Origin: Bacteroidaceae bacterium
GTDB lineage: Bacteria > Bacteroidota > Bacteroidia > Bacteroidales > Bacteroidaceae
Direction of reading: 5' to 3'
NCBI GenBank assembly: GCA_017631315.1
Contig: JAGBTN010000017.1
Coordinates: forward strand, 124,001 to 188,000
DNA: 64,000 nucleotides
Part shown: positions 44,359-52,071 of the stretch, one piece after another
Numbering within the stretch: position 1 is the first letter of the stretch
How the letters are laid out: every line of letters begins with the position of its first letter
Notes under the pieces: generated by a model
Database searches by the model: none
What the model was told of the DNA's origin: nothing
Seen by the model: only the letters and a program-made list of their open reading frames with translations
Made by a program: the position numbers and the translations under genes

Positions 44359-45741
44359 CTACATCAGTCCGTTGAGCATGCCGTAGAAGAACATGGGTTT
44401 CAGGAAGTGTTTTTTCAGCATCCATGCTGATGCTTGTTCCTTCGACATGTCTTGAAGTGTGAACGGGAAGGTGATGTCGGGGTTCTTGTCGTAGTCGAAT
44501 TCGCACAGCAGAACATGGCCGTAGTCTGTTACGATGGGACAGCAGGCGTATCCGTTGTACTCTTTCGTGGGTTCTTTGCCTTGCATGATGCTGAGCAGGT
44601 TGTCGACGGCGATGGGCAACTGAATGCGGATTGCCGACGATGTCTTGCTGGTAGGTATTCCGGCAACGTCTCCCAGGCAGACGATGTTAGGGTAGGCAAG
44701 ATGGACGAGTGTCTTCTTGTCCACCATGGCCCATCCGTCCTTTGCCAGTTTGCCTTCAGTCCAGGAGAGGCCGGCATTGCGTACGAAGTCGGGCGCCGAC
44801 TGTGGTGGAACGAAACTCAACAAGTCGTAATCCTCGACGCGAGGCGTAACGATTTCGCGTTCCACCTCTGTCTCGTTGCCTTGTGCGTCCGTCTGTGTTT
44901 CTTTTACTTTCTCGTAGTGTTCCAGATAGACCTTCTTTGCCAGCGTGTCGATGCCCTTAACGCGGTGGCGCACTTCCAGTCCGATGTTACGTTCTTCGTA
45001 TATCTGAAGCAGTCGGGGCGTGTAGAGAGGCACGTCGTAGAGTGCCTTCTCGGAGCAGAAATAGTCCAGTTGCACGCCGTCGCGTTTGCCTTCTTTGCGG
45101 GCAAGATGCTCGGTGAGCATGCAGATTTTCTTTGGTGCACCGCCGCATTTGTGCTTGGTGTATGTGTCGGTGAAGACGCCTCGTCCGCCTTTTGCCACCA
45201 GTTCCTGGATGGCGGGCCAAATGCGTTGTGCGCCCATAAAGTCGTAGATGCAGTGTGCATTTCCCTGTCCCAGGGTTTCGCGGCTGATGCCTTCCACCTT
45301 GTCCCAGTTGATTTGCAGACCCGGTGTCAGCACCAGGAAGTCATATTCCACCATTTGTCCGCCGGCAGTGCGTGCCGTCTGTTTTACAGGGTCTAATTCG
45401 ATAACCGAGTCCTTTATCCACTTCACGCCGCTTGGGATGCACTTCGACATGGGCTTCCACACCTCGTCGGGTTTGAAGATGCCAGCAGCGATGAAGGTGA
45501 AGCCCGGCTGATAGTATTGTCTGTCGGCAGGGTCGATCAGCGTGATATCTGGGTTGCTGAGGCGGCGCATAAGGCGTGCAGCGAAACTGCATCCTGCAGC
45601 ACCACCGCCAATGATGAGGATACGTCCCTTGGCATCTACCATATTCAAATGGTGCATTACTCCGCCTCCAATGCCTAAGACGGCAGCAGTGCCAACTCCG
45701 GCTTTCAGGAAGGTGCGGCGGTTCATGGTTGTCTTTTTCAT
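44359..45741 (-). CDS. Sulfide:quinone oxidoreductase-like flavoprotein with Tat signal
   Basis: 460 residues. Twin-arginine signal 'NRRTFLKAGVGTAAVLGIGG' at the N-terminus, then FAD-binding 'GRILIIGGGAAGCSFAARLM', 'YYQPGFTFIAAGIF' and the second dinucleotide region 'IVCLGDVAGIPTSKTSSAIR'. Cysteines in 'HKCGGAPKKICML' may take part in redox chemistry, as in SQR. Predicted to be exported folded via TatAC (this window) and to pass electrons to quinone; flavocytochrome c subunit is an alternative. Stops 15 bases before the open frame of tamB begins. Confidence 0.88.
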   Translation of the reverse strand: MKKTTMNRRTFLKAGVGTAAVLGIGGGVMHHLNMVDAKGRILIIGGGAAGCSFAARLMRRLSNPDITLIDPADRQYYQPGFTFIAAGIFKPDEVWKPMSKCIPSGVKWIKDSVIELDPVKQTARTAGGQMVEYDFLVLTPGLQINWDKVEGISRETLGQGNAHCIYDFMGAQRIWPAIQELVAKGGRGVFTDTYTKHKCGGAPKKICMLTEHLARKEGKRDGVQLDYFCSEKALYDVPLYTPRLLQIYEERNIGLEVRHRVKGIDTLAKKVYLEHYEKVKETQTDAQGNETEVEREIVTPRVEDYDLLSFVPPQSAPDFVRNAGLSWTEGKLAKDGWAMVDKKTLVHLAYPNIVCLGDVAGIPTSKTSSAIRIQLPIAVDNLLSIMQGKEPTKEYNGYACCPIVTDYGHVLLCEFDYDKNPDITFPFTLQDMSKEQASAWMLKKHFLKPMFFYGMLNGLM

Positions 45742-45986: not shown

Positions 45987-46190
45987 AAAATGTTGTAAAG
46001 AATTTTCCAAAGCACCGAAAAATTCACTTCACACAAGAACTGTTTCCCGACTTGGCAGTAGATGTTTTCATGTCCCTGCGGTAATTTGCAAATTACACTC
46101 GTGTAGTTTGAGAAGTTCACACGTCTGTTTTCCTGTTTTCAAGCGTCTATTTTGACGAAGGAACTCTACTTTTCCGCCAGTTTTACATGA
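45987..46190. repeat. 22-bp-period intergenic array, locus G
   Basis: GGCAGTAG (46054, complement of CTACTGCC) with in-phase words at 46076 (CTGCGGTA), 46098 (CTCGTGTA), 46120 (CACGTCTG), 46142 (AGCGTCTA) and 46164 (CTCTACTT). To the left, 45987-46008 is an inverted exact copy of 9401-9422. The 45807-46253 gap has no gene. Confidence 0.6.
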
Positions 46191-46253
46191 GTTTTTCCGT
46201 TCGTCGAAATGTAATCTCCTGATGCATAATTAGTTCCCTTGTGTGAAAAATAA

Positions 46254-46295
46254 CGGTTCTTTTTGACGAACGACCCGTTCCGCCAAAAAGAACCG
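46254..46295. other. Strong hairpin upstream of the WYL gene
   Basis: CGGTTCTTTTTG (46254-46265) and CAAAAAGAACCG (46284-46295) form a 12-bp perfect stem around an 18-base loop. It includes TTTTGACGAAC, which recurs after the nuclease gene at 48421. Confidence 0.65.
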
Positions 46296-46369
46296 CTTCT
46301 CACGAGGCAGGGCTCATGCAAAAAACTTGACAAATCAATTTGCCTGCTCTTATAAGCAAGATGTGAATC

Positions 46370-46411
46370 GGCTCATTTTCTTGCATATTTGAGCCAATTT
46401 GCTTACCTTTG
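46370..46411 (+). promoter_or_regulatory. Promoter of the WYL-nuclease unit with overlapping inverted repeat
   Basis: TTG (46381-46383) and TACCTTTG (46404-46411) are 20 bases apart. GGCTCA (46370-46375) and TGAGCC (46390-46395) form an inverted repeat centred on the -33 element, the expected place for a repressor operator; autoregulation by the WYL protein is a reasonable guess. Confidence 0.6.
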
Positions 46412-46462
46412 TGAGAGAAAATGCTGAGCTCCCAAAAGAATTAAATTTTCAAGATACACTCA

Positions 46463-47380
46463 ATGATTAGCAAGACATATTATAAGTACATCTGGCTTCT
46501 TGACCTGTTACTTAACAGCGACGAACCTCTTTCGTTTGACATCATAAGTTCGGAATGGGACCTCAATCCTGCAGCCGATGATACGACTCTGGCTCTTCGT
46601 ACATTCCATGAATACAGGAAGGGTATAAAGGAAATGTTTGGGGTGGATATAGAGTGCGACCGGAAGAGAAATGTGTATTACGTCAAGAACCCTGAGGTCT
46701 TGGAGGAGAATCGACTGGCTAAGTGGCTGCTGCGCAAGTATAGTATCCCCAAAGACTTTGCAACTTTCAATGGTATGAAGGGCAGAGTATTGCTTGAGGA
46801 GATTCCTTTGGGGCAAGCTTTCTTGGACAGCATCTTGGATGCCATGCAAAGGAATGTGGAACTGCGGATAGACTATCAGAGCTATGAAAGAGGGCAGGAA
46901 GAAGAACACATGCAAACGTTCCATTTTCAGCCATACGCCTTAAAGGTCTATAATCGCCGTTGGTATCTCTTAGGATACCAGAAAGAGAAGGAAGCCCTGC
47001 GTCTTATATCTTTAGACCGCATTCATGATTTGAAGAAAACGAGCACTCATTTTGAATTGCCGTCAGACTTTGATGCGAGGAAGTATTTTGCGGATGTGGT
47101 TGGTGTTTATGTGGATAAGGACAAGCAAGCCTCTAATGTTAAGATTCGTGCGTATGGCGTACTGGCAGAGTATCTTCGTTCAACACCTCTGCACAAGAGT
47201 CAGGCAGAAGTTTGTTCCAAACATGGAGAATTTGCGGAGTTTACATATAGATTATGTATAACTCCAGAGCTCATCAGCCAACTGTTGGCTATGGGAGAAA
47301 ATGTGGAAGTCCTGGAGCCGGAGGAATTGAGAGAGGAGATGAAAGAGAGGATTAATAATATGTTTAACTTTTATAAGTAA
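46463..47380 (+). CDS. WYL domain transcriptional regulator
   Basis: 305 residues. N-terminal winged-helix-like segment (about 1-70), then a WYL domain (about 120-200) with 'FHFQPYALKVYNRRWYLLGY' and 'ALRLISLDRI', and a C-terminal extension (WCX-like). WYL proteins commonly repress or activate phage-defence genes on sensing nucleic-acid ligands. The next gene, 6 bases on, is a predicted nuclease, so it probably controls that unit. Confidence 0.88.
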   Translation: MISKTYYKYIWLLDLLLNSDEPLSFDIISSEWDLNPAADDTTLALRTFHEYRKGIKEMFGVDIECDRKRNVYYVKNPEVLEENRLAKWLLRKYSIPKDFATFNGMKGRVLLEEIPLGQAFLDSILDAMQRNVELRIDYQSYERGQEEEHMQTFHFQPYALKVYNRRWYLLGYQKEKEALRLISLDRIHDLKKTSTHFELPSDFDARKYFADVVGVYVDKDKQASNVKIRAYGVLAEYLRSTPLHKSQAEVCSKHGEFAEFTYRLCITPELISQLLAMGENVEVLEPEELREEMKERINNMFNFYK

Positions 47381-47386
47381 AGAATT

Positions 47387-48412
47387 ATGAAAATCCCTAA
47401 AAAATTCCCTGAAGAAACAACCAACCCAATTTATACTGAGTTCTTTTCAAAGAGCAAATTGGAAGCAGAGGTAGAAAAAACAAAATGGCGTGGCCGTCCT
47501 TCTGATAACTCTTTTTGTTTTATTAATCCAGAAGTGAAATATAAAGAACGAGAAGGTGTAGTATTGAAAAAACTCAAAGAAGTCTTCGGTATAGATTCTA
47601 ATACTTTTGATACAAAATTTCGACAGGCAATTTCTGGTGATGGCCAAGAAGTTAAGCGAATCTCAACTCTTCATTCTTCATCTTTGGCTGCTTTGTTGCT
47701 TTTATATTCTGTTTCAGAAAATGAACTTGAATGTACCTTAGATGGAGAAAACTATACTTTTCATGATTGTTTTTTTGAGGTAAAGACAAATGTGAAAGAT
47801 AGTCATTTCTCCAATATGGACATTGTTTTAGTTGGCAAGAATTCTGAGGGCAGAGATGTACTGTTCTTTTTAGAGAGCAAATTCAGCGAATATCTATATC
47901 CAGTAATGTGTAATAACATAAGTTTCTCATATAAGGAAGAATATGAAAAATTAGGACTATTTGGGGATAATGCTATACAAGGACTTCTTATTCAAGATGG
48001 AATAGGAAAAGATAACTTAAAATGTTTGCAAATTAAGTCTTCTTCTGATGAACCTCAATATTGTAGTGGAATCAAACAGATGATTTCTCACTATATTGGC
48101 GTAACTAATTTTATAAACAAAGGTATTGAAGCAATGGATACAAATCAAATTCAATATTTTGAGAAAATTGTTAATTTGAGAGATTGTGCAGAAATTATTT
48201 TGGGCGAGGTGTTGTTTGCCTTTGATGATAAGGTTGATAAGGGAAAAACAAAGTTTTCCAGATATTCTTCTATTTATAGGGATTTAGCAAAAGTATTAGA
48301 ATTAAAGAAGAAATCCTCGAGGTTACATATACTGCCTGAAGTTTTAACCTATCAGGAACTTCTTAAAGATTTTAAAATAGACAGCAAAGTCAAAGATTTC
48401 TATCAATTGTAA
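47387..48412 (+). CDS. Predicted PD-(D/E)XK-fold nuclease (accessory)
   Basis: 341 residues, no signal peptide or membrane helix. A nuclease-like core is visible: E131 in 'CFFEVKTNV', D145 in 'NMDIVLVGKN', and E163-S-K165 in 'VLFFLESKFSEYL', the spacing of PD-(D/E)XK enzymes. It recalls the PGN_0703 type of putative restriction endonucleases, at low certainty. Clearly AT-richer than the flanking housekeeping genes, a sign of transfer. Paired with the WYL regulator and closed by a terminator at 48494, it forms a compact candidate defence unit. No methyltransferase partner is present. Confidence 0.6.
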   Translation: MKIPKKFPEETTNPIYTEFFSKSKLEAEVEKTKWRGRPSDNSFCFINPEVKYKEREGVVLKKLKEVFGIDSNTFDTKFRQAISGDGQEVKRISTLHSSSLAALLLLYSVSENELECTLDGENYTFHDCFFEVKTNVKDSHFSNMDIVLVGKNSEGRDVLFFLESKFSEYLYPVMCNNISFSYKEEYEKLGLFGDNAIQGLLIQDGIGKDNLKCLQIKSSSDEPQYCSGIKQMISHYIGVTNFINKGIEAMDTNQIQYFEKIVNLRDCAEIILGEVLFAFDDKVDKGKTKFSRYSSIYRDLAKVLELKKKSSRLHILPEVLTYQELLKDFKIDSKVKDFYQL

Positions 48413-48493
48413 AATGACCGTTTTGACGAACTGAAAGGATAAAGGCTTTTATGCGATAAATAGCAAATAGCGCAAATTTCCTCTTAGCTTCTG

Positions 48494-48532
48494 CGGCGTT
48501 TTTGCATAGATAATGGCGAAAACGCCGTTTTT
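48494..48532 (+). terminator. Terminator of the WYL-nuclease unit
   Basis: CGGCGTTTT (48494-48502) and AAAACGCCG (48519-48527) form a 9-bp stem followed by TTTTT. Confidence 0.75.
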
Positions 48533-48601
48533 CAGTTTTTCTTATCGTATAAATATATATAGAGGGGCTTCCTTAATTAAAACACCTCTCTTGACAAATA
48601 T

Positions 48602-49000
48602 ATGATAAAGAATCAAATCAACACGAGTGAATTGATTGCCGAAAACCAGCGTTATGTTGAACTTGTGGCAAAGCAGTATCTGGACCAAGGTCTCACCCTT
48701 GAGCAACTCATTGAAGCAGGAAATCGAGGGCTGGCAGAAGCCGCAAAACGGTTCGATTCCAGCAAAGGACACTCCTTCATGAGCTATGCTGTCTGGTGGG
48801 TTAGGCAAGGCATCCTGCAAGCCCTAGCCAATCATTCGTCAGGCAAGTCAATCCCTTTGTCTGAGCGCGAACGAAGCATCCAACAAGACATCGACGAAGG
48901 CCGCCTTCTTGCAGACATAGCCAAAGAATGGAGCCTCACAGAAAGAAGGGTGCAACAAATCCACAATCGAAGTGTCTTAAAGACAATAAATAATGTATAA
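48602..49000 (+). CDS. Miniature sigma-70-like factor
   Basis: 132 residues. Residues 14-78 match region 2 of the housekeeping Bacteroidetes sigma factor nearly throughout ('YVELVAKQYLDQGLTLEQL', 'NRGLAEAAKRFDSSKGHSFM', 'SYAVWWVRQGILQALANHS'). Residues 101-127 look like the region 4.2 HTH ('LADIAKEWSLTERRVQQI'). Regions 1, 3 and 4.1 are gone, an internal deletion of roughly 150 residues relative to RpoD. Region 2 suffices to bind RNA polymerase beta-prime and the -10/-7 element, so it could be an alternative sigma or a competitor. It overlaps the next gene by 8 bases. Confidence 0.85.
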   Translation: MIKNQINTSELIAENQRYVELVAKQYLDQGLTLEQLIEAGNRGLAEAAKRFDSSKGHSFMSYAVWWVRQGILQALANHSSGKSIPLSERERSIQQDIDEGRLLADIAKEWSLTERRVQQIHNRSVLKTINNV

Positions 49001-50210
49001 GCATATGAAAAAGTCACACTCAGAATTACTTCAGGGCCTCGTTTCGGCTGGTTTGAGAGAACGTTACGGCAAAGAGCTCGAGCCCCAACAGATTAATGAA
49101 AATACAATGACCTGCAGTGTTGCACCCGTTAGAATGTTTTTGGAAATGAAACAGATAGAAGAGGCAGGCTTCATTGATTACTATCTGATGGCGTTCTGGG
49201 TATTCAATTTCCATGCGAGAGCAGCTGGAATAAATGTCTGGGCAAGAGGAGCGGTACCTTCATCTGTGGTCTGCTATTGCCTGGGACTTACAGATGTTGA
49301 CCCCATTAAGTATGGCCTTCATTCAGCCAGATTCGTTAATGAAGGCCTACCCAAGTTCCAGTTCGACATAGAGGCTTCGCGCTTCGATGAGTTTATGAAG
49401 AGAGCAGAGGAAATACTTGCCGAAAATGCAGAGGACTATGACATTCCTGCCATCAGGGAATGCCTGTTCAAGGACGTAAAACCATACAAGTATCTGGACA
49501 ATAAACAAGAGAGACCTTTGCCTGAAGACCTCGAAGATGAGTTCGCGCGTTATGCCCTCTATTTCCCACAGACGATGGATTTGTTCTGTACTTATGTCAA
49601 CCAATATCCCAATTGCGACCTCCTCATCTATCAGGAGCAGATGTTCGACATTTTGAGAGAGGTCTTTCATGTGAGCGGCATTAAGGCTAATCATATTCGT
49701 CTGAGCATTCAGCGAGGCGAGACCGAGCAAATAGAAGCATACAAGCATGAAGTCTTTGAGGCTTCTGACCTTTCAACCGAGGAGAAAGAAAAAGCCTGGC
49801 AACGACTCACCAGCAATCCCAAAGCCTTTCTGAAAGCCCACGTAGTCAGCCAAGTGTTGGCGAGCTATAGATTTGATATGGGCGAGGGTTTCATAAAAAA
49901 GTGGAAAGAAATAAGAGAGTACAATGAAGGACTGGCAGGAGTTAAGAATGCTGATGGCAGATGGGGCTTCATTGATAAAACAGGTAATCTTGTGCTACCT
50001 TGTCTGTGGAAGAAAGCTCTCTGGTTTTCCGAAGGCTTGGCTGGAGTGCAAGATGACAATGAGAAGTGGGGCTTTATCGACAAGACGGGTAAGGTGGTAC
50101 TTCCGTTTGAATGGAGCAATGTGCAATGGTTCAAGAACGGTCGAGTGAGAGTACAGACAGTTCTCGGCGGCGCTTGGCACGACATAGACGGTGAAGGTGC
50201 ATGTGTGTGA
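48993..50210 (+). CDS. DnaE-like (Pol III alpha) remnant fused to WG repeats
   Basis: 405 residues (ATG 48993; ATG 49005 would remove the overlap). Residues 45-127 align with the DnaE palm: 'EEAGFIDYYLMAFWVFNF', 'ARGAVPSSVVCYCLGLTD', 'DPIKYGLHSARFVNEGLP', then 'FQFDIE' where DnaE has PDxDxD. Two of those three acidic positions are changed (to Gln and Glu), so polymerase activity is unlikely. Residues 187-292 resemble the DnaE fingers ('LIYQEQMFDILREVF', 'KAHVVSQVLASY'). PHP, the rest of the palm/fingers and the beta-clamp region are absent. Residues 310-395 are two and a half WG repeats ('WGFIDKTGNLVLP', 'WGFIDKTGKVVLP'). Not a family I know by name. Confidence 0.8.
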   Translation: MYKHMKKSHSELLQGLVSAGLRERYGKELEPQQINENTMTCSVAPVRMFLEMKQIEEAGFIDYYLMAFWVFNFHARAAGINVWARGAVPSSVVCYCLGLTDVDPIKYGLHSARFVNEGLPKFQFDIEASRFDEFMKRAEEILAENAEDYDIPAIRECLFKDVKPYKYLDNKQERPLPEDLEDEFARYALYFPQTMDLFCTYVNQYPNCDLLIYQEQMFDILREVFHVSGIKANHIRLSIQRGETEQIEAYKHEVFEASDLSTEEKEKAWQRLTSNPKAFLKAHVVSQVLASYRFDMGEGFIKKWKEIREYNEGLAGVKNADGRWGFIDKTGNLVLPCLWKKALWFSEGLAGVQDDNEKWGFIDKTGKVVLPFEWSNVQWFKNGRVRVQTVLGGAWHDIDGEGACV

Positions 50211-50378
50211 TGTTCTTCCTCTATTTATAAGGGCAATTAGTGCTGCATATGAAAACAAGTTTATTGAGAATTTATATGTGATAAATCAGTAATGTTCGTA
50301 TAGTGATGTACAAGTTTAAAGATATCTTTTTGTAAGAGTGTAGGAATTTGAAGTGTAATTATATGATTTAAGAGTTGT

Positions 50379-50798
50379 ATGAATTTAGGAAGGCTTTCAG
50401 ACACGGAACGTTCACAAGTTGAGGAGGTAATGCGTAATGCATCTGCCGATAAACCAATGGTTGGTATATTCTGGTATGATGTTGTTAATGACGAATTGTT
50501 TGGCGTCGATTCGGTAAATCCTGACACACTAAAAGGACAATCGCAGAAGACATCTTCTAAAAGGCATGACCAGGTATGGAAGAAAGAACACTATCGTGCT
50601 GTTGCAAGGAATAAAAAGAACTCACCCTTTTATAAAGAAGTTGACGGGTATAATGTACCAAGAGGCAGAGTCTTCAAGGACACTACTAAGTTTTATGTCA
50701 TGGTGGGGTGTTGGATTGATGATTACCCACAGGCTAAAGACTTAATTATTGATGAGTTTAATCTACCTCCAGATGTACTTTTTAAGTATGATAAATAA
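50379..50798 (+). CDS. Uncharacterised 139-residue protein
   Basis: Soluble, no signal peptide. The conserved-looking stretches are 'KPMVGIFWYDVVNDELFGV', 'VWKKEHYRAVARNKK', 'VPRGRVFKDTTKFYVMVG' and 'CWIDDYPQAKDLIIDEFNLP'. I have seen similar short proteins in Bacteroidales accessory regions but cannot assign a function. Its stop is one base before the next gene's ATG, indicating a coupled pair. The 168 bases before it (50211-50378) show no clear promoter. Confidence 0.7.
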   Translation: MNLGRLSDTERSQVEEVMRNASADKPMVGIFWYDVVNDELFGVDSVNPDTLKGQSQKTSSKRHDQVWKKEHYRAVARNKKNSPFYKEVDGYNVPRGRVFKDTTKFYVMVGCWIDDYPQAKDLIIDEFNLPPDVLFKYDK

Positions 50799-50799
50799 T

Positions 50800-51231
50800 A
50801 TGGAAACAACAATCAGAAACAAAAGCGGAGAATCCACTCTTACAATCAAAGGCGATTTCTATCAGATTCTTGATGAGAACTTTAAGGAAATATGTAAGGC
50901 AATCACCAACAAAGTCAAAAGCCTTAAAGAAATGAAGGCTTTCCTCGACGCGGATGACCAGGTAATAAAAACTATCCTCCATATCATTAATTATTCCATC
51001 ACCCCAGAAGCCGCAGTCTTAAAACTTCAAGAAGAACTTGGCATGAGCAAAATGGCGGCTAAATATCTGTTGAATATATCTTCGGGCACACGTATTTTCT
51101 TGACAGCAGAAGGCATAGAGCAAGAATTGGCAGAATATAGAAAGCAGATGGAAGCTATCAGTTCCCTTTGCCAACCAGAGATAGAGTTCATGGAATGTGA
51201 CGATATAAAACGAACACCATCAATTTGCTAA
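50800..51231 (+). CDS. Small protein resembling the GyrA/ParC coiled-coil segment
   Basis: 143 residues from ATG 50800, which directly follows the previous stop; an upstream in-frame ATG at 50749 would overlap that gene. Residues about 53-125 ('DQVIKTILHIINYSITPEAA', 'KLQEELGMSKMAAKYLLNI', 'GIEQELAEYRKQMEAIS') follow the pattern of the type IIA topoisomerase A-subunit coiled-coil tip (I-x-x-S-x-x-xx-EA, L-x-E-x-F-x-S-x-x-QA-x-x-I-L, then the E-x-E-Y helix). The catalytic Tyr domain and beta-pinwheel are absent. The match is by eye and moderate. Confidence 0.6.
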   Translation: METTIRNKSGESTLTIKGDFYQILDENFKEICKAITNKVKSLKEMKAFLDADDQVIKTILHIINYSITPEAAVLKLQEELGMSKMAAKYLLNISSGTRIFLTAEGIEQELAEYRKQMEAISSLCQPEIEFMECDDIKRTPSIC

Positions 51232-51296
51232 TAATAAGTAATTCAAGTATAGTTGTAAAATCAAACATAAATAGGAACAACATAAAATAGTAAGGT

Positions 51297-51623
51297 ATGA
51301 ACTACAAGAAATTATCTATGATATTTGATATGGCAAACTTGTTACCAAAACGCACAGGTTTGGCATACAATATTTGGTATGGGCCTAAAGAGCCTAGACA
51401 TAAGCCCAGAGTAAAAGTATCAATAGGTAATGGAAAGGAGCTCTCTATAGAGATCGAAAGTCACAAGGTTTTAGGAGATGTAAATAAAATAGACAAGTCT
51501 GAGCTAACTAAAATATTCAAGTGGTTAGATTTAAATAAGGATATCTTATTAAGATATTGGAATGAAGCAAGGGATGGAAAAATGGACAATGGTGATGTTT
51601 TAGAGAATCTAAAGAAAGTCTAA
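51297..51623 (+). CDS. Uncharacterised 108-residue protein
   Basis: Short soluble protein: a basic beta-rich N-terminal half ('LAYNIWYGPKEPRHKPRVKV') and a helical C-terminal half ('KIFKWLDLNKDILLRYWNEA'). The second half is faintly like small DUF4160-type accessory proteins. Gene is AT-rich, 65 bases after the GyrA-like gene, and ends 26 bases before a perfect palindrome. Confidence 0.6.
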   Translation: MNYKKLSMIFDMANLLPKRTGLAYNIWYGPKEPRHKPRVKVSIGNGKELSIEIESHKVLGDVNKIDKSELTKIFKWLDLNKDILLRYWNEARDGKMDNGDVLENLKKV

Positions 51624-51649
51624 AGCAGTTTAAGGTGTCAATATAACTA

Positions 51650-51683
51650 ATACGAGAAGAATAGTTAACTATTCTTCTCGTAT
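51650..51683. terminator. 34-bp perfect palindrome terminator
   Basis: Bases 51650-51666 (ATACGAGAAGAATAGTT) are followed directly by their exact reverse complement. It closes the island's last clear gene. Confidence 0.75.
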
Positions 51684-51752
51684 TTCGTATTATAAGTACT
51701 CGTTAAAAGGACCACGGGTAATTTATGTTGGTAAGCGTCCTAAGATAAAGTT

Positions 51753-51857
51753 ATGACAAGAACACAACAATTTATTGAAAAGTTCAAGAAAGTACTTAGT
51801 GATGGTGCAGCCTTTTACAATCCTGACACATCCTTAATGAAGAAAGAAAATGACTAA
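51753..51857 (+). CDS. Possible 34-residue ORF
   Basis: 'MTRTQQFIEKFKKVLSDGAA' followed by 14 more residues. It overlaps a second tiny frame by 8 bases, an arrangement like coupled small genes. It could also be the remnant of a decayed gene in this otherwise empty stretch (51684-52071). Confidence 0.3.
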   Translation: MTRTQQFIEKFKKVLSDGAAFYNPDTSLMKKEND

Positions 51858-51921
51858 AAGAATTTACAGAAGTGCAGTAAGTGGTGATATGGTTGTTAAG
51901 CTGCCTAAGCAGTTTTTTTAG
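51850..51921 (+). CDS. Possible 23-residue ORF, perhaps a gene remnant
   Basis: 'MTKRIYRSAVSGDMVVKLPK' plus QFF. The 'RIYRSAVSG' start recalls short phage/plasmid proteins that normally run longer, so this may be truncated. CTGC/GCAG plus seven T at its end could be a weak terminator. Confidence 0.25.
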   Translation: MTKRIYRSAVSGDMVVKLPKQFF

Positions 51922-52071
51922 GTTTGAGAGCCTCCTACTTTTTCTGGATTAAGTTGATAAATTGTTGTCTTTTTCTGTCTGCGCTATGCTGCTTTTTAGG
52001 AAGAATTCATCATAAAATCTTCCTTTCAAGGAAAAACTTTTGGAATGTTCGTTTTTCTTTTCTTTTTTTTG

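What the first reader, a model, noticed from the sequence alone, without database searches (positions are those of the whole stretch)
48602..51231. Cluster of cut-down copies of sigma-70, DnaE and (probably) GyrA in one accessory island
Within 2.6 kb there are three proteins that each look like a shortened, partly degenerate copy of an essential information-processing protein: RpoD (region 2 plus HTH only), replicative polymerase alpha (palm/finger pieces with altered active site, fused to WG repeats), and a type IIA topoisomerase A subunit (coiled-coil piece). The first two genes overlap by 8 bases, and the GyrA-like gene is tightly paired with an unknown gene. One such remnant could be chance decay; three intact frames side by side suggest they work as mimics or decoys that bind RNA polymerase, the clamp/replisome and gyrase, perhaps to halt or protect these machines during phage attack or transfer. 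I know of no described system with this composition.
Basis: partly seen in the sequence, partly recalled or inferred. Interest (0 to 1): 0.9.

Follow-up and report, generated by a model that had tools for sequence, protein, structure and literature searches.

The report
Arrays of trimmed housekeeping-protein look-alikes
Some gut bacteria carry mobile gene islands that pair a nuclease-like gene with shortened, often inactive look-alikes of the cell's own transcription, DNA-replication, gyrase and cell-division proteins, which may serve as baits that betray or absorb an attacker.

Summary
The window genes are homologous to RpoD, DnaE and GyrA, in an island led by a WYL regulator and a nuclease-like gene.

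In 33 array loci (Prevotellaceae/Bacteroidales), the DnaE look-alike has a sigma look-alike beside it in 31; both misses lie at contig ends. The 33 also hold pieces of FtsZ (8 loci), GyrA (8), DnaB (3) and a second DnaE palm (12). Two fusions join pieces: DnaE+sigma and DnaE+FtsZ. The first two active-site aspartates of DnaE are replaced in all 32 look-alikes extracted. Look-alike frames are under purifying selection (dN/dS 0.15-0.42). Longer array sigmas come repeatedly from the genus's own rpoD; the window's short piece could not be placed. Full-length rpoD, dnaB, ftsZ and gyrA exist elsewhere in nearly all genomes checked. A hairpin element occurs only at these arrays in 139 genus genomes. 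The insertion site is empty in 10 of 11 relatives, and the nuclease-like gene is swapped between close relatives.

Best reading: a mobile, probably defensive system whose look-alikes are baits for invader proteins. Main rival: dominant-negative fragments. No function was tested; no description was found in the literature searched.

The parts
46463..47380 (+). WYL-domain transcription regulator (WYL + WCX), first gene of the unit
   Evidence: Pfam WYL 1.5e-14, WCX 9.8e-11; homologue in 27 of 33 array loci
47387..48412 (+). PD-(D/E)XK-type nuclease-like protein, possible effector, 6 bp after the WYL gene; family differs between arrays
   Evidence: Weak PDDEXK_13 0.012, below cut-off; a protein in the same slot of L056 hits REase-ARP 1.9e-38 and PDDEXK_13 1.4e-9; 25% identical to the G005 protein although neighbours are 92-93% identical
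48493..48528 (+). Conserved hairpin (13-bp stem, 10-base loop) followed by a T run, between nuclease-like gene and sigma piece
   Evidence: Pattern found 22 times in 17 of 139 genus genomes, 0 in the reversed-pattern control; 97.7% of cells paired in 27 distinct sequences
48545..48566 (+). Promoter-like element TCGTATAAATATATATAGAGGG, upstream of the look-alike genes
   Evidence: Such an element found in 17 of 27 loci scanned; function inferred
48602..49000 (+). Sigma-70 look-alike, 132 aa: region 2 plus a short HTH; region 3 and most of regions 1.2 and 4 missing
   Evidence: alignment to own RpoD
49005..50210 (+). DnaE look-alike: palm-N + fingers, stretch between them deleted, catalytic PDxDxD changed to PKFQFD, WG repeats at the C-terminus
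50379..50798 (+). c16, 139 aa, unknown; paired with the GyrA piece here and in G005, longer homologue in L041
   Evidence: No Pfam, NCBIfam, PHROG or PADLOC hit; in 3 of 33 loci
50800..51231 (+). GyrA look-alike, 143 aa: C-gate/coiled-coil base only (own GyrA about 385-457), no catalytic tyrosine
51297..51623 (+). DUF4160-like small protein (also weakly like toxin DhiT), possible cargo
   Evidence: DUF4160 1.6e-4, 22.2 bits against cut-off 23; toxin_DhiT 1.9e-4, far below cut-off

Best explanation
This is one copy of a mobile, probably defensive, array system of gut Prevotellaceae. A WYL regulator (likely a repressor that senses a signal) controls a swappable PD-(D/E)XK-type nuclease and one or two further transcription units. 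Those units encode trimmed or inactive look-alikes of the host's own sigma70, DnaE, GyrA and, in sibling arrays, DnaB and FtsZ. Most likely the look-alikes are baits: invader proteins (phage takeover factors or toxins) that attack the real machines bind the copies. Binding either titrates the attacker or changes a look-alike/nuclease complex and frees the nuclease. Shown here: the homologies, loss of DnaE catalytic residues, co-location, two fusions, purifying selection, repeated recruitment of longer array sigmas from host rpoD, a shared DNA element, presence/absence at a chromosomal site, and swapping of the nuclease-like gene. Inferred: nuclease activity, WYL control, bait binding, coupling to the nuclease and the defence role.
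For: Conserved co-location: sigma piece with DnaE piece 31 of 33, WYL 27 of 33; the DnaE piece lies within 1.6 kb of a contig end in all six loci without WYL. Five different essential proteins are represented, which fits a list of attack targets better than one pathway. The DnaE motif is P[K/R/Q/Y/T]-x-[Q/T] in 32 of 32 extracted look-alikes, against PDIDTD in the own DnaE. The GyrA piece is limited to the C-gate side (own GyrA 385-457, envelope to 476); CcdB binding to gyrase is abolished by GyrA R462C (PMC8814602, passages seen). Pieces are fused to one another (L054 DnaE+sigma, L167 DnaE+FtsZ), which suggests joint action. Array sigmas of 185 aa or more need at least 3 origins among the genus's rpoD in the tree, one of them resting on a long branch. 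One is full length and only 6 of 286 residues away from its host's RpoD although 115 of 858 bases differ, i.e. selected to stay like RpoD. Presence/absence and swap of the nuclease-like gene. WYL regulators lie beside phage-defence systems (PMC9122601, abstract and passages). Sensing through something the invader attacks is a known bacterial principle (PMC12409349 passages; Panoptes PMC12657218 abstract).
Against: No phage, toxin or binding data. No defence system is recognised among the 7 window and 3 array proteins scanned. Nuclease membership is weak for the window protein (0.012). Of 22 first genes after a WYL gene, 16 look PD-(D/E)XK-like by eye, but the motif regex is not specific (18 of 22 against 46 of 149 other genes), and 4 of 8 siblings tested have no relevant Pfam hit. 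FtsZ pieces are seen only by profile comparison: c28 found no FtsZ in the PDB (best hits antibody chains, E 0.63) and c56 found no FtsZ in Pfam. The conserved 152-aa gene c3 (15 of 33 loci) stays unexplained. The hairpin was not seen in the 7 arrays L166-L172. Look-alikes could equally inhibit the host machines. No structure could be predicted.
Confidence: 0.42

Rival explanations
1. Dominant-negative fragments. On infection or stress the WYL regulator releases the array, and the fragments insert into the cell's own RNA polymerase, replisome, gyrase, DnaB ring and FtsZ filament and stop them, a multi-target growth arrest that starves the invader (abortive infection or persistence).
For: Domain fragments lacking catalysis but keeping interface regions are classic inhibitors (general knowledge); DnaE active site lost; the DnaB piece keeps only the RecA-like domain; FtsZ pieces are either the C-terminal or the N-terminal half.
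Against: Some arrays carry a complete RpoD-like sigma, one 98% identical to its host's RpoD (L045), which should work rather than poison. The window sigma piece differs from RpoD in the region-2.2 stretch (LEQLIEAGN against LPDLINEGN; its role in core binding is recalled). The tight control this would need is not shown.
Confidence: 0.27
2. Passive sponge or immunity cargo: look-alikes only titrate toxins delivered by competitors or plasmids (gyrase, FtsZ or replication toxins), with no link to the nuclease.
For: The GyrA piece covers the region beside the CcdB-resistance position; Bacteroidales carry immunity-gene islands (recalled); the island ends in a DUF4160/DhiT-like gene.
Against: Does not explain the WYL regulator in 27 of 33 loci, a nuclease-like gene behind it in about 16 of 22 (by eye), nor the constant sigma/DnaE pair.
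Confidence: 0.14
3. New regulators or enzymes: the pieces form a new complex, for example a nucleotide-binding DnaE-like sensor with a sigma adaptor that drives the array's own promoter; similarity to housekeeping proteins is only ancestry.
For: The GRG arginine and finger motifs that may bind nucleotides are partly kept (roles recalled); a shared promoter-like element precedes many units; some array sigmas are full length.
Against: Does not explain why GyrA, DnaB and FtsZ pieces join the same arrays, nor the 116-aa sigma without an HTH.
Confidence: 0.12
4. Decaying gene copies in a recombination hot spot, no function.
For: Genes are truncated and several contigs break at the arrays.
Against: dN/dS 0.09-0.47 for array genes in the pairs with a finite value (pairs under 50% identity skipped, two saturated); trimmed forms, gene order and hairpin are kept between species.
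Confidence: 0.03

Closest known systems
WYL-regulated defence loci (BrxR/BREX, CapW/CBASS)
   Same: A WYL regulator leads an island with nuclease-like and variable genes
   Different: No BREX or CBASS protein among the 10 proteins scanned; several other genes are pieces of host housekeeping proteins
MZA system (MzaA, sigma-70-like protein)
   Same: Contains a sigma-70 region-2 protein inside a defence locus; the window sigma hits the MzaA models through that domain (1.8e-18 NCBIfam; 1.9e-15 PADLOC)
   Different: The MzaA models are 726 and 683 positions long; no other MZA component was hit by the proteins scanned
Guard/decoy immunity (plant integrated decoys, recalled; bacterial Panoptes, PARIS, Ronin)
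   Same: Would detect an attack on a copy or on a guarded target
   Different: The bacterial examples use nucleotides or restriction-type proteins; here the baits would be protein copies of essential machines. Triggering not shown
CcdB-GyrA14 type target fragments
   Same: The GyrA piece is from the C-gate side of GyrA, beside the residue-462 position that CcdB binding needs
   Different: GyrA14 is a laboratory fragment (its limits recalled); here a natural gene encodes a piece, about 22% identical to GyrA over 58 aligned columns

Membership tests
RpoD/sigma-70 factor | Region 2 (core binding, -10 recognition) | tested here: met
   Sigma70_r2 4.7e-13
RpoD/sigma-70 factor | Regions 3 and complete 4 | tested here: not met
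   Region 3 absent, region 4 shortened and below the Pfam cut-off in the window copy
DNA polymerase III alpha (DnaE) | Catalytic aspartates in palm | tested here: not met
   PKFQFD instead of PDIDTD; replaced in 32 of 32 extracted look-alikes
DNA polymerase III alpha (DnaE) | PHP, thumb, clamp-binding and C-terminal domains | tested here: not met
   Only two pieces align, palm-N and fingers
GyrA | Catalytic tyrosine and DNA-gate domain | tested here: not met
   Only own GyrA about 385-457 aligns
MZA | MzaB-MzaE partners | tested here: not met
   No such hits among the 7 window and 3 array proteins scanned
BREX or CBASS | Core genes next to the WYL regulator | tested here: not met
   No core-gene hits among the same 10 proteins; genes further away were not scanned
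Guard/decoy defence system | Look-alike binds an invader protein and triggers or titrates | not testable with these tools
   Needs binding and phage assays
PD-(D/E)XK nuclease | Recognisable family match and catalytic motif | tested here: inconclusive
   Window protein 0.012; 3 of 8 sibling-slot proteins reach the REase-ARP cut-off (1.9e-38, 1.2e-8, and 4e-6 over a short stretch), 1 hits DUF6946, 4 have no relevant hit; motif test not specific

The most novel reading that the evidence does not exclude
Bacteria run arrays of protein decoys, copies of the essential machines that phages and toxins attack, re-copied from host genes as they wear out, trimmed to the attacked surface, fused into multi-bait proteins and wired through a WYL switch to an interchangeable nuclease: a bacterial counterpart of plant integrated-decoy immunity that reports an attack on transcription, replication, DNA topology or cell division.
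Probability: 0.28. Interest if true: 0.95.

Novelty: categorically new. Interest (0 to 1): 0.83.

Why it matters
If the look-alikes are baits, bacteria sense or block invaders at the host proteins they must attack, and the bait list would predict unknown phage takeover proteins of gut Bacteroidales. If they are dominant-negative fragments, this is a new multi-target growth-arrest module. Either way it is a compact, testable locus in which evolution has itself chosen which piece of RpoD, DnaE, GyrA, DnaB and FtsZ is enough.

Tried and rejected
Chance decay: disfavoured, because frames, order and dN/dS are conserved. Phage or plasmid origin: the DnaE piece has no relative in viral contigs (110 pattern stretches, none confirmed). 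In 135 phage records the matches are all under 60% identity and none covers 80% of the query; the listed annotated hits are DNA polymerase III alpha. In 957 plasmid records all are under 60% identity and one, not looked at, covers 80%. The GyrA piece has no phage match. The longer sigma pieces group with host rpoD. DnaE, DnaB and GyrA pieces were not put in trees, so their donor is not shown.

c3 as an FtsZ piece: suspected by eye, not supported (0.1%; reversed controls score higher). L171_9 as a GyrA piece: only 18.7%, not counted. c16, c6 and c9/c17 remain unassigned. Rfam: no hit in 46000-52000. Hairpin covariation: only one pair changes on both sides (3 cells; 10 of 500 shuffles as high), so selection on the fold is suggested, not proven. 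The PD-(D/E)XK motif regex is unspecific. A first FtsZ comparison used wrong-strand frames and was redone. A first motif regex (second part) was faulty and redone. The first synteny table undercounted sigma because longer opposite-strand frames were picked, and was redone with profiles. Paper searches that led nowhere.
Full report
Observation. The window lies in a 2.7-Mb assembly (G000) whose relatives with this gene family are Prevotellaceae/Bacteroidales. Frames at 48602-49000, 48993-50210 and 50749-51231 are intact. Pfam and NCBIfam place the first in sigma-70 region 2 (4.7e-13; RpoD 4.9e-21) and the second in DnaE (2.5e-16; polc 1.2e-18) with WG repeats (2e-20). The third is weak alone (0.011). 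Its seven-member profile finds 26 PDB sequences, all GyrA or topoisomerase IV A (best 5e-4). A relative reaches 2.3e-7, just under the Pfam cut-off. Hhalign to 10 Bacteroidales GyrA gives 92.9%, against 0.8% for the same alignment reversed and 1.5% for ParC.

Anatomy. The unit begins with a WYL regulator (46463-47380), followed after 6 bp by a PD-(D/E)XK-like protein (47387-48412). Next come a hairpin (48493-48528) with a T run and a TCGTATA...GAGGG element (48545-48566), then the sigma piece, the DnaE piece, c16, the GyrA piece and a DUF4160-like gene. The sigma piece lacks region 3 and most of regions 1.2 and 4. The DnaE piece aligns to DnaE as palm-N (profile 7-125) and fingers (159-295), with about 200 residues of DnaE between them missing. 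The motif PDIDTD of the own DnaE is P[K/R/Q/Y/T]-x-[Q/T]-x-[D/E] in all 32 look-alikes extracted. L054 was not caught by the expression, and three spurious short frames were dropped from the 35 rows. The GyrA piece covers own GyrA 385-457 (envelope 369-476), the C-gate side, without the catalytic tyrosine.

Distribution. A profile of the DnaE piece matches 14 of 399 genomes of the family at E <= 1e-25. Of 37 loci from the one-genome-per-species collection, 26 (L037-L062) are this family; the other 11 match over a part only, at 32-40% identity, as ordinary polymerases would. The 26 records are titled Prevotellaceae, Bacteroidaceae, Bacteroidales or Prevotella; the sample names given are ruminant gut sites (rumen, reticulum, omasum, abomasum, cecum) or reindeer, and 'RUG' as a rumen label is recalled. 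No viral contig holds one.

Array content. I took 33 loci with a DnaE piece: the window, 25 of the 26 (L061 is L169), and L166-L172. Copies of the same contig fetched under other numbers, and loci without a DnaE piece (L141, L145, L146, L148, L174, L175), were not counted. All six-frame frames were scanned with family profiles. Sigma piece 31 of 33; the two misses (L043, L169) have the DnaE frame within 340 bases of the contig start. WYL 27, MBL-fold protein 18, c3 15, second DnaE-palm piece 12, GyrA piece 8, DnaB piece 3, FtsZ piece 8 (c28 in 3, c56 in 5 including one fusion). The DnaB piece is Pfam DnaB_C 4.2e-47 and 100% by hhalign. The second DnaE-palm piece is weaker (Pfam 0.0027; hhalign 76%). 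FtsZ pieces score 94-97% against 23 FtsZ proteins or their C-terminal domain, and 1% or less against the reversed alignments. On their own, however, c28 found no FtsZ in the PDB and c56 none in Pfam. In L148 FtsZ is split into an N-terminal (100%) and a C-terminal gene (96%) behind a WYL gene. L141 carries a finger-only DnaE piece (3.8e-19). Two natural fusions join pieces: L054 (DnaE+sigma) and L167 (DnaE+FtsZ, where the full FtsZ profile also hits). In L045 the DnaE and sigma genes overlap by 4 bp (coordinates).

Selection and origin. Pairwise dN/dS of array genes lies between 0.09 (WYL) and 0.47 (a 67-aa gene), with the sigma, DnaE, GyrA, DnaB and FtsZ look-alikes at 0.15-0.42. These are simple Nei-Gojobori counts without error bars; pairs under 50% identity were skipped and two saturated. 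Between the window and G005, synonymous distances of array genes (0.22-0.38) are below that of the neighbouring nqrA (0.70). Between the window and L053 they are lower for WYL (0.33) and GyrA (0.24) but higher for DnaE (1.29, nqrA 0.87). So genes of one array have different histories, which suggests exchange between species. A tree of 19 rpoD and 11 array sigmas of at least 185 aa needs 4 changes of label, at least 3 forced by well-supported branches, with one array sigma on a very long branch. The window's 132-aa piece was too short to include. In G210 the array sigma differs from that genome's other rpoD at 6 of 286 residues but 115 of 858 bases. So this slot can hold an almost perfect RpoD, a region-3 deletion (207 aa) or a 116-132-aa remnant. 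Full-length copies outside the arrays: rpoD in 7 of 7 array genomes searched, DnaB in 14 of 15; FtsZ and GyrA in the own genome (21 of 25 and 13 of 13 genomes, the own one included, have a match).

DNA element. The 37-base hairpin pattern, with up to 2 mismatches, occurs 22 times in 17 of 139 genus genomes. By position the 22 lie in the loci described here (one, G210:C46, is a contig end with WYL, nuclease-like and sigma genes only). The reversed pattern never occurs, and the own genome has one match. A looser scan finds the hairpin in 23 of 27 loci (window and L037-L062; the four others start at a contig end) and the TCGTATA element in 17 of 27. Among L166-L172 the hairpin is absent and the element is in two. 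97.7% of cells pair in 27 distinct sequences, with one compensatory pair. Six arrays have two copies of the hairpin. I read it as terminator plus promoter; this is inference.

Mobility. In 10 of 11 relatives with enough sequence the genes flanking the island, tamB and nqrA, are 226-475 bp apart, and in one 1.9 kb; in the window 7.9 kb lies between them. G005 has an island at the same site with WYL 93%, sigma 92%, DnaE 88% and GyrA piece 84% identical, but the nuclease-like protein only 25%. The gene after WYL belongs to several unrelated families; 16 of 22 look PD-(D/E)XK-like by eye, and 3 of 8 siblings tested reach the REase-ARP cut-off, one over a short stretch only.

Mechanism. BrxR, a WYL regulator, is a repressor, and 48% of its homologues lie beside known phage-defence systems (PMC9122601, abstract and passages). 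CapW, another, is linked to CBASS (PMC9122588, start of abstract). Sensing an attack on a guarded target or decoy is an accepted bacterial principle (PMC12409349 passages; PMC12657218 abstract). That the five proteins copied here are targets of phage proteins or toxins is general knowledge, not a call; for gyrase, CcdB binding is lost with GyrA R462C (PMC8814602 passages). I therefore favour baits coupled to a swappable nuclease (0.42), with dominant-negative arrest as main rival (0.27). The near-perfect RpoD in L045 argues against poisoning; lack of any functional data keeps both open.

Known or new. Searches of the open-access library listed no paper that by title or abstract start describes such arrays. 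Apart from the four papers cited, only listings were read. Most subscription journals are not held. PADLOC recognises no system among the proteins scanned. The nearest relatives in kind are WYL-led defence islands and the sigma-bearing MZA system; neither fits. I rate the locus type as categorically new and its function as open.

Noticed in passing
L174 7095-8330 (G000:C5 about 22.1-23.3 kb): The own genome has a second full-length FtsZ-like gene (411 aa) in a stretch with WG-repeat-like proteins and a distant WYL gene; second FtsZ genes also occur in G003, G008 and G015, and the four group together at 93/91 support.
   Followed up: partly
L175 3376-5900 (G015:C10 about 73.4-76 kb): A degenerate DnaB-like gene (294 aa, hhalign 97%, DnaB_C 4.1e-8) lies directly before a second FtsZ, on the same contig as a sigma/DnaE array.
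   Followed up: partly
L150, L152, L154, L160, L162, L163: More distant WYL relatives head loci with a 163-188-aa DnaQ-like exonuclease and other variable genes (family names recalled); the look-alike profiles found nothing else there.
   Followed up: no
L132, L138, L149, L151, L039, L043, L045: Contigs often break at or inside the arrays or soon after the WYL gene, suggesting repeats or strain variation in the sampled population.
   Followed up: no
L250 and L274 (G008:C5 and C2): G008 holds two nqrA copies 94-95% identical to the window's, possibly a mixed assembly.
   Followed up: no
window 44359-45741: An FAD-dependent-oxidoreductase-like gene (name recalled) lies between tamB and the WYL gene; it was not found in the stretches fetched from 11 relatives or from G005, so a second insertion may have occurred here.
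   Followed up: partly
L056 8034, L057 8123, L062 8090, L047 585, L038 12285, L043 1285, L053 11392: Small proteins with one hydrophobic segment (c9/c17, hhalign 96% to each other) and a conserved N-terminal motif are carried in several arrays; function unknown.
   Followed up: partly
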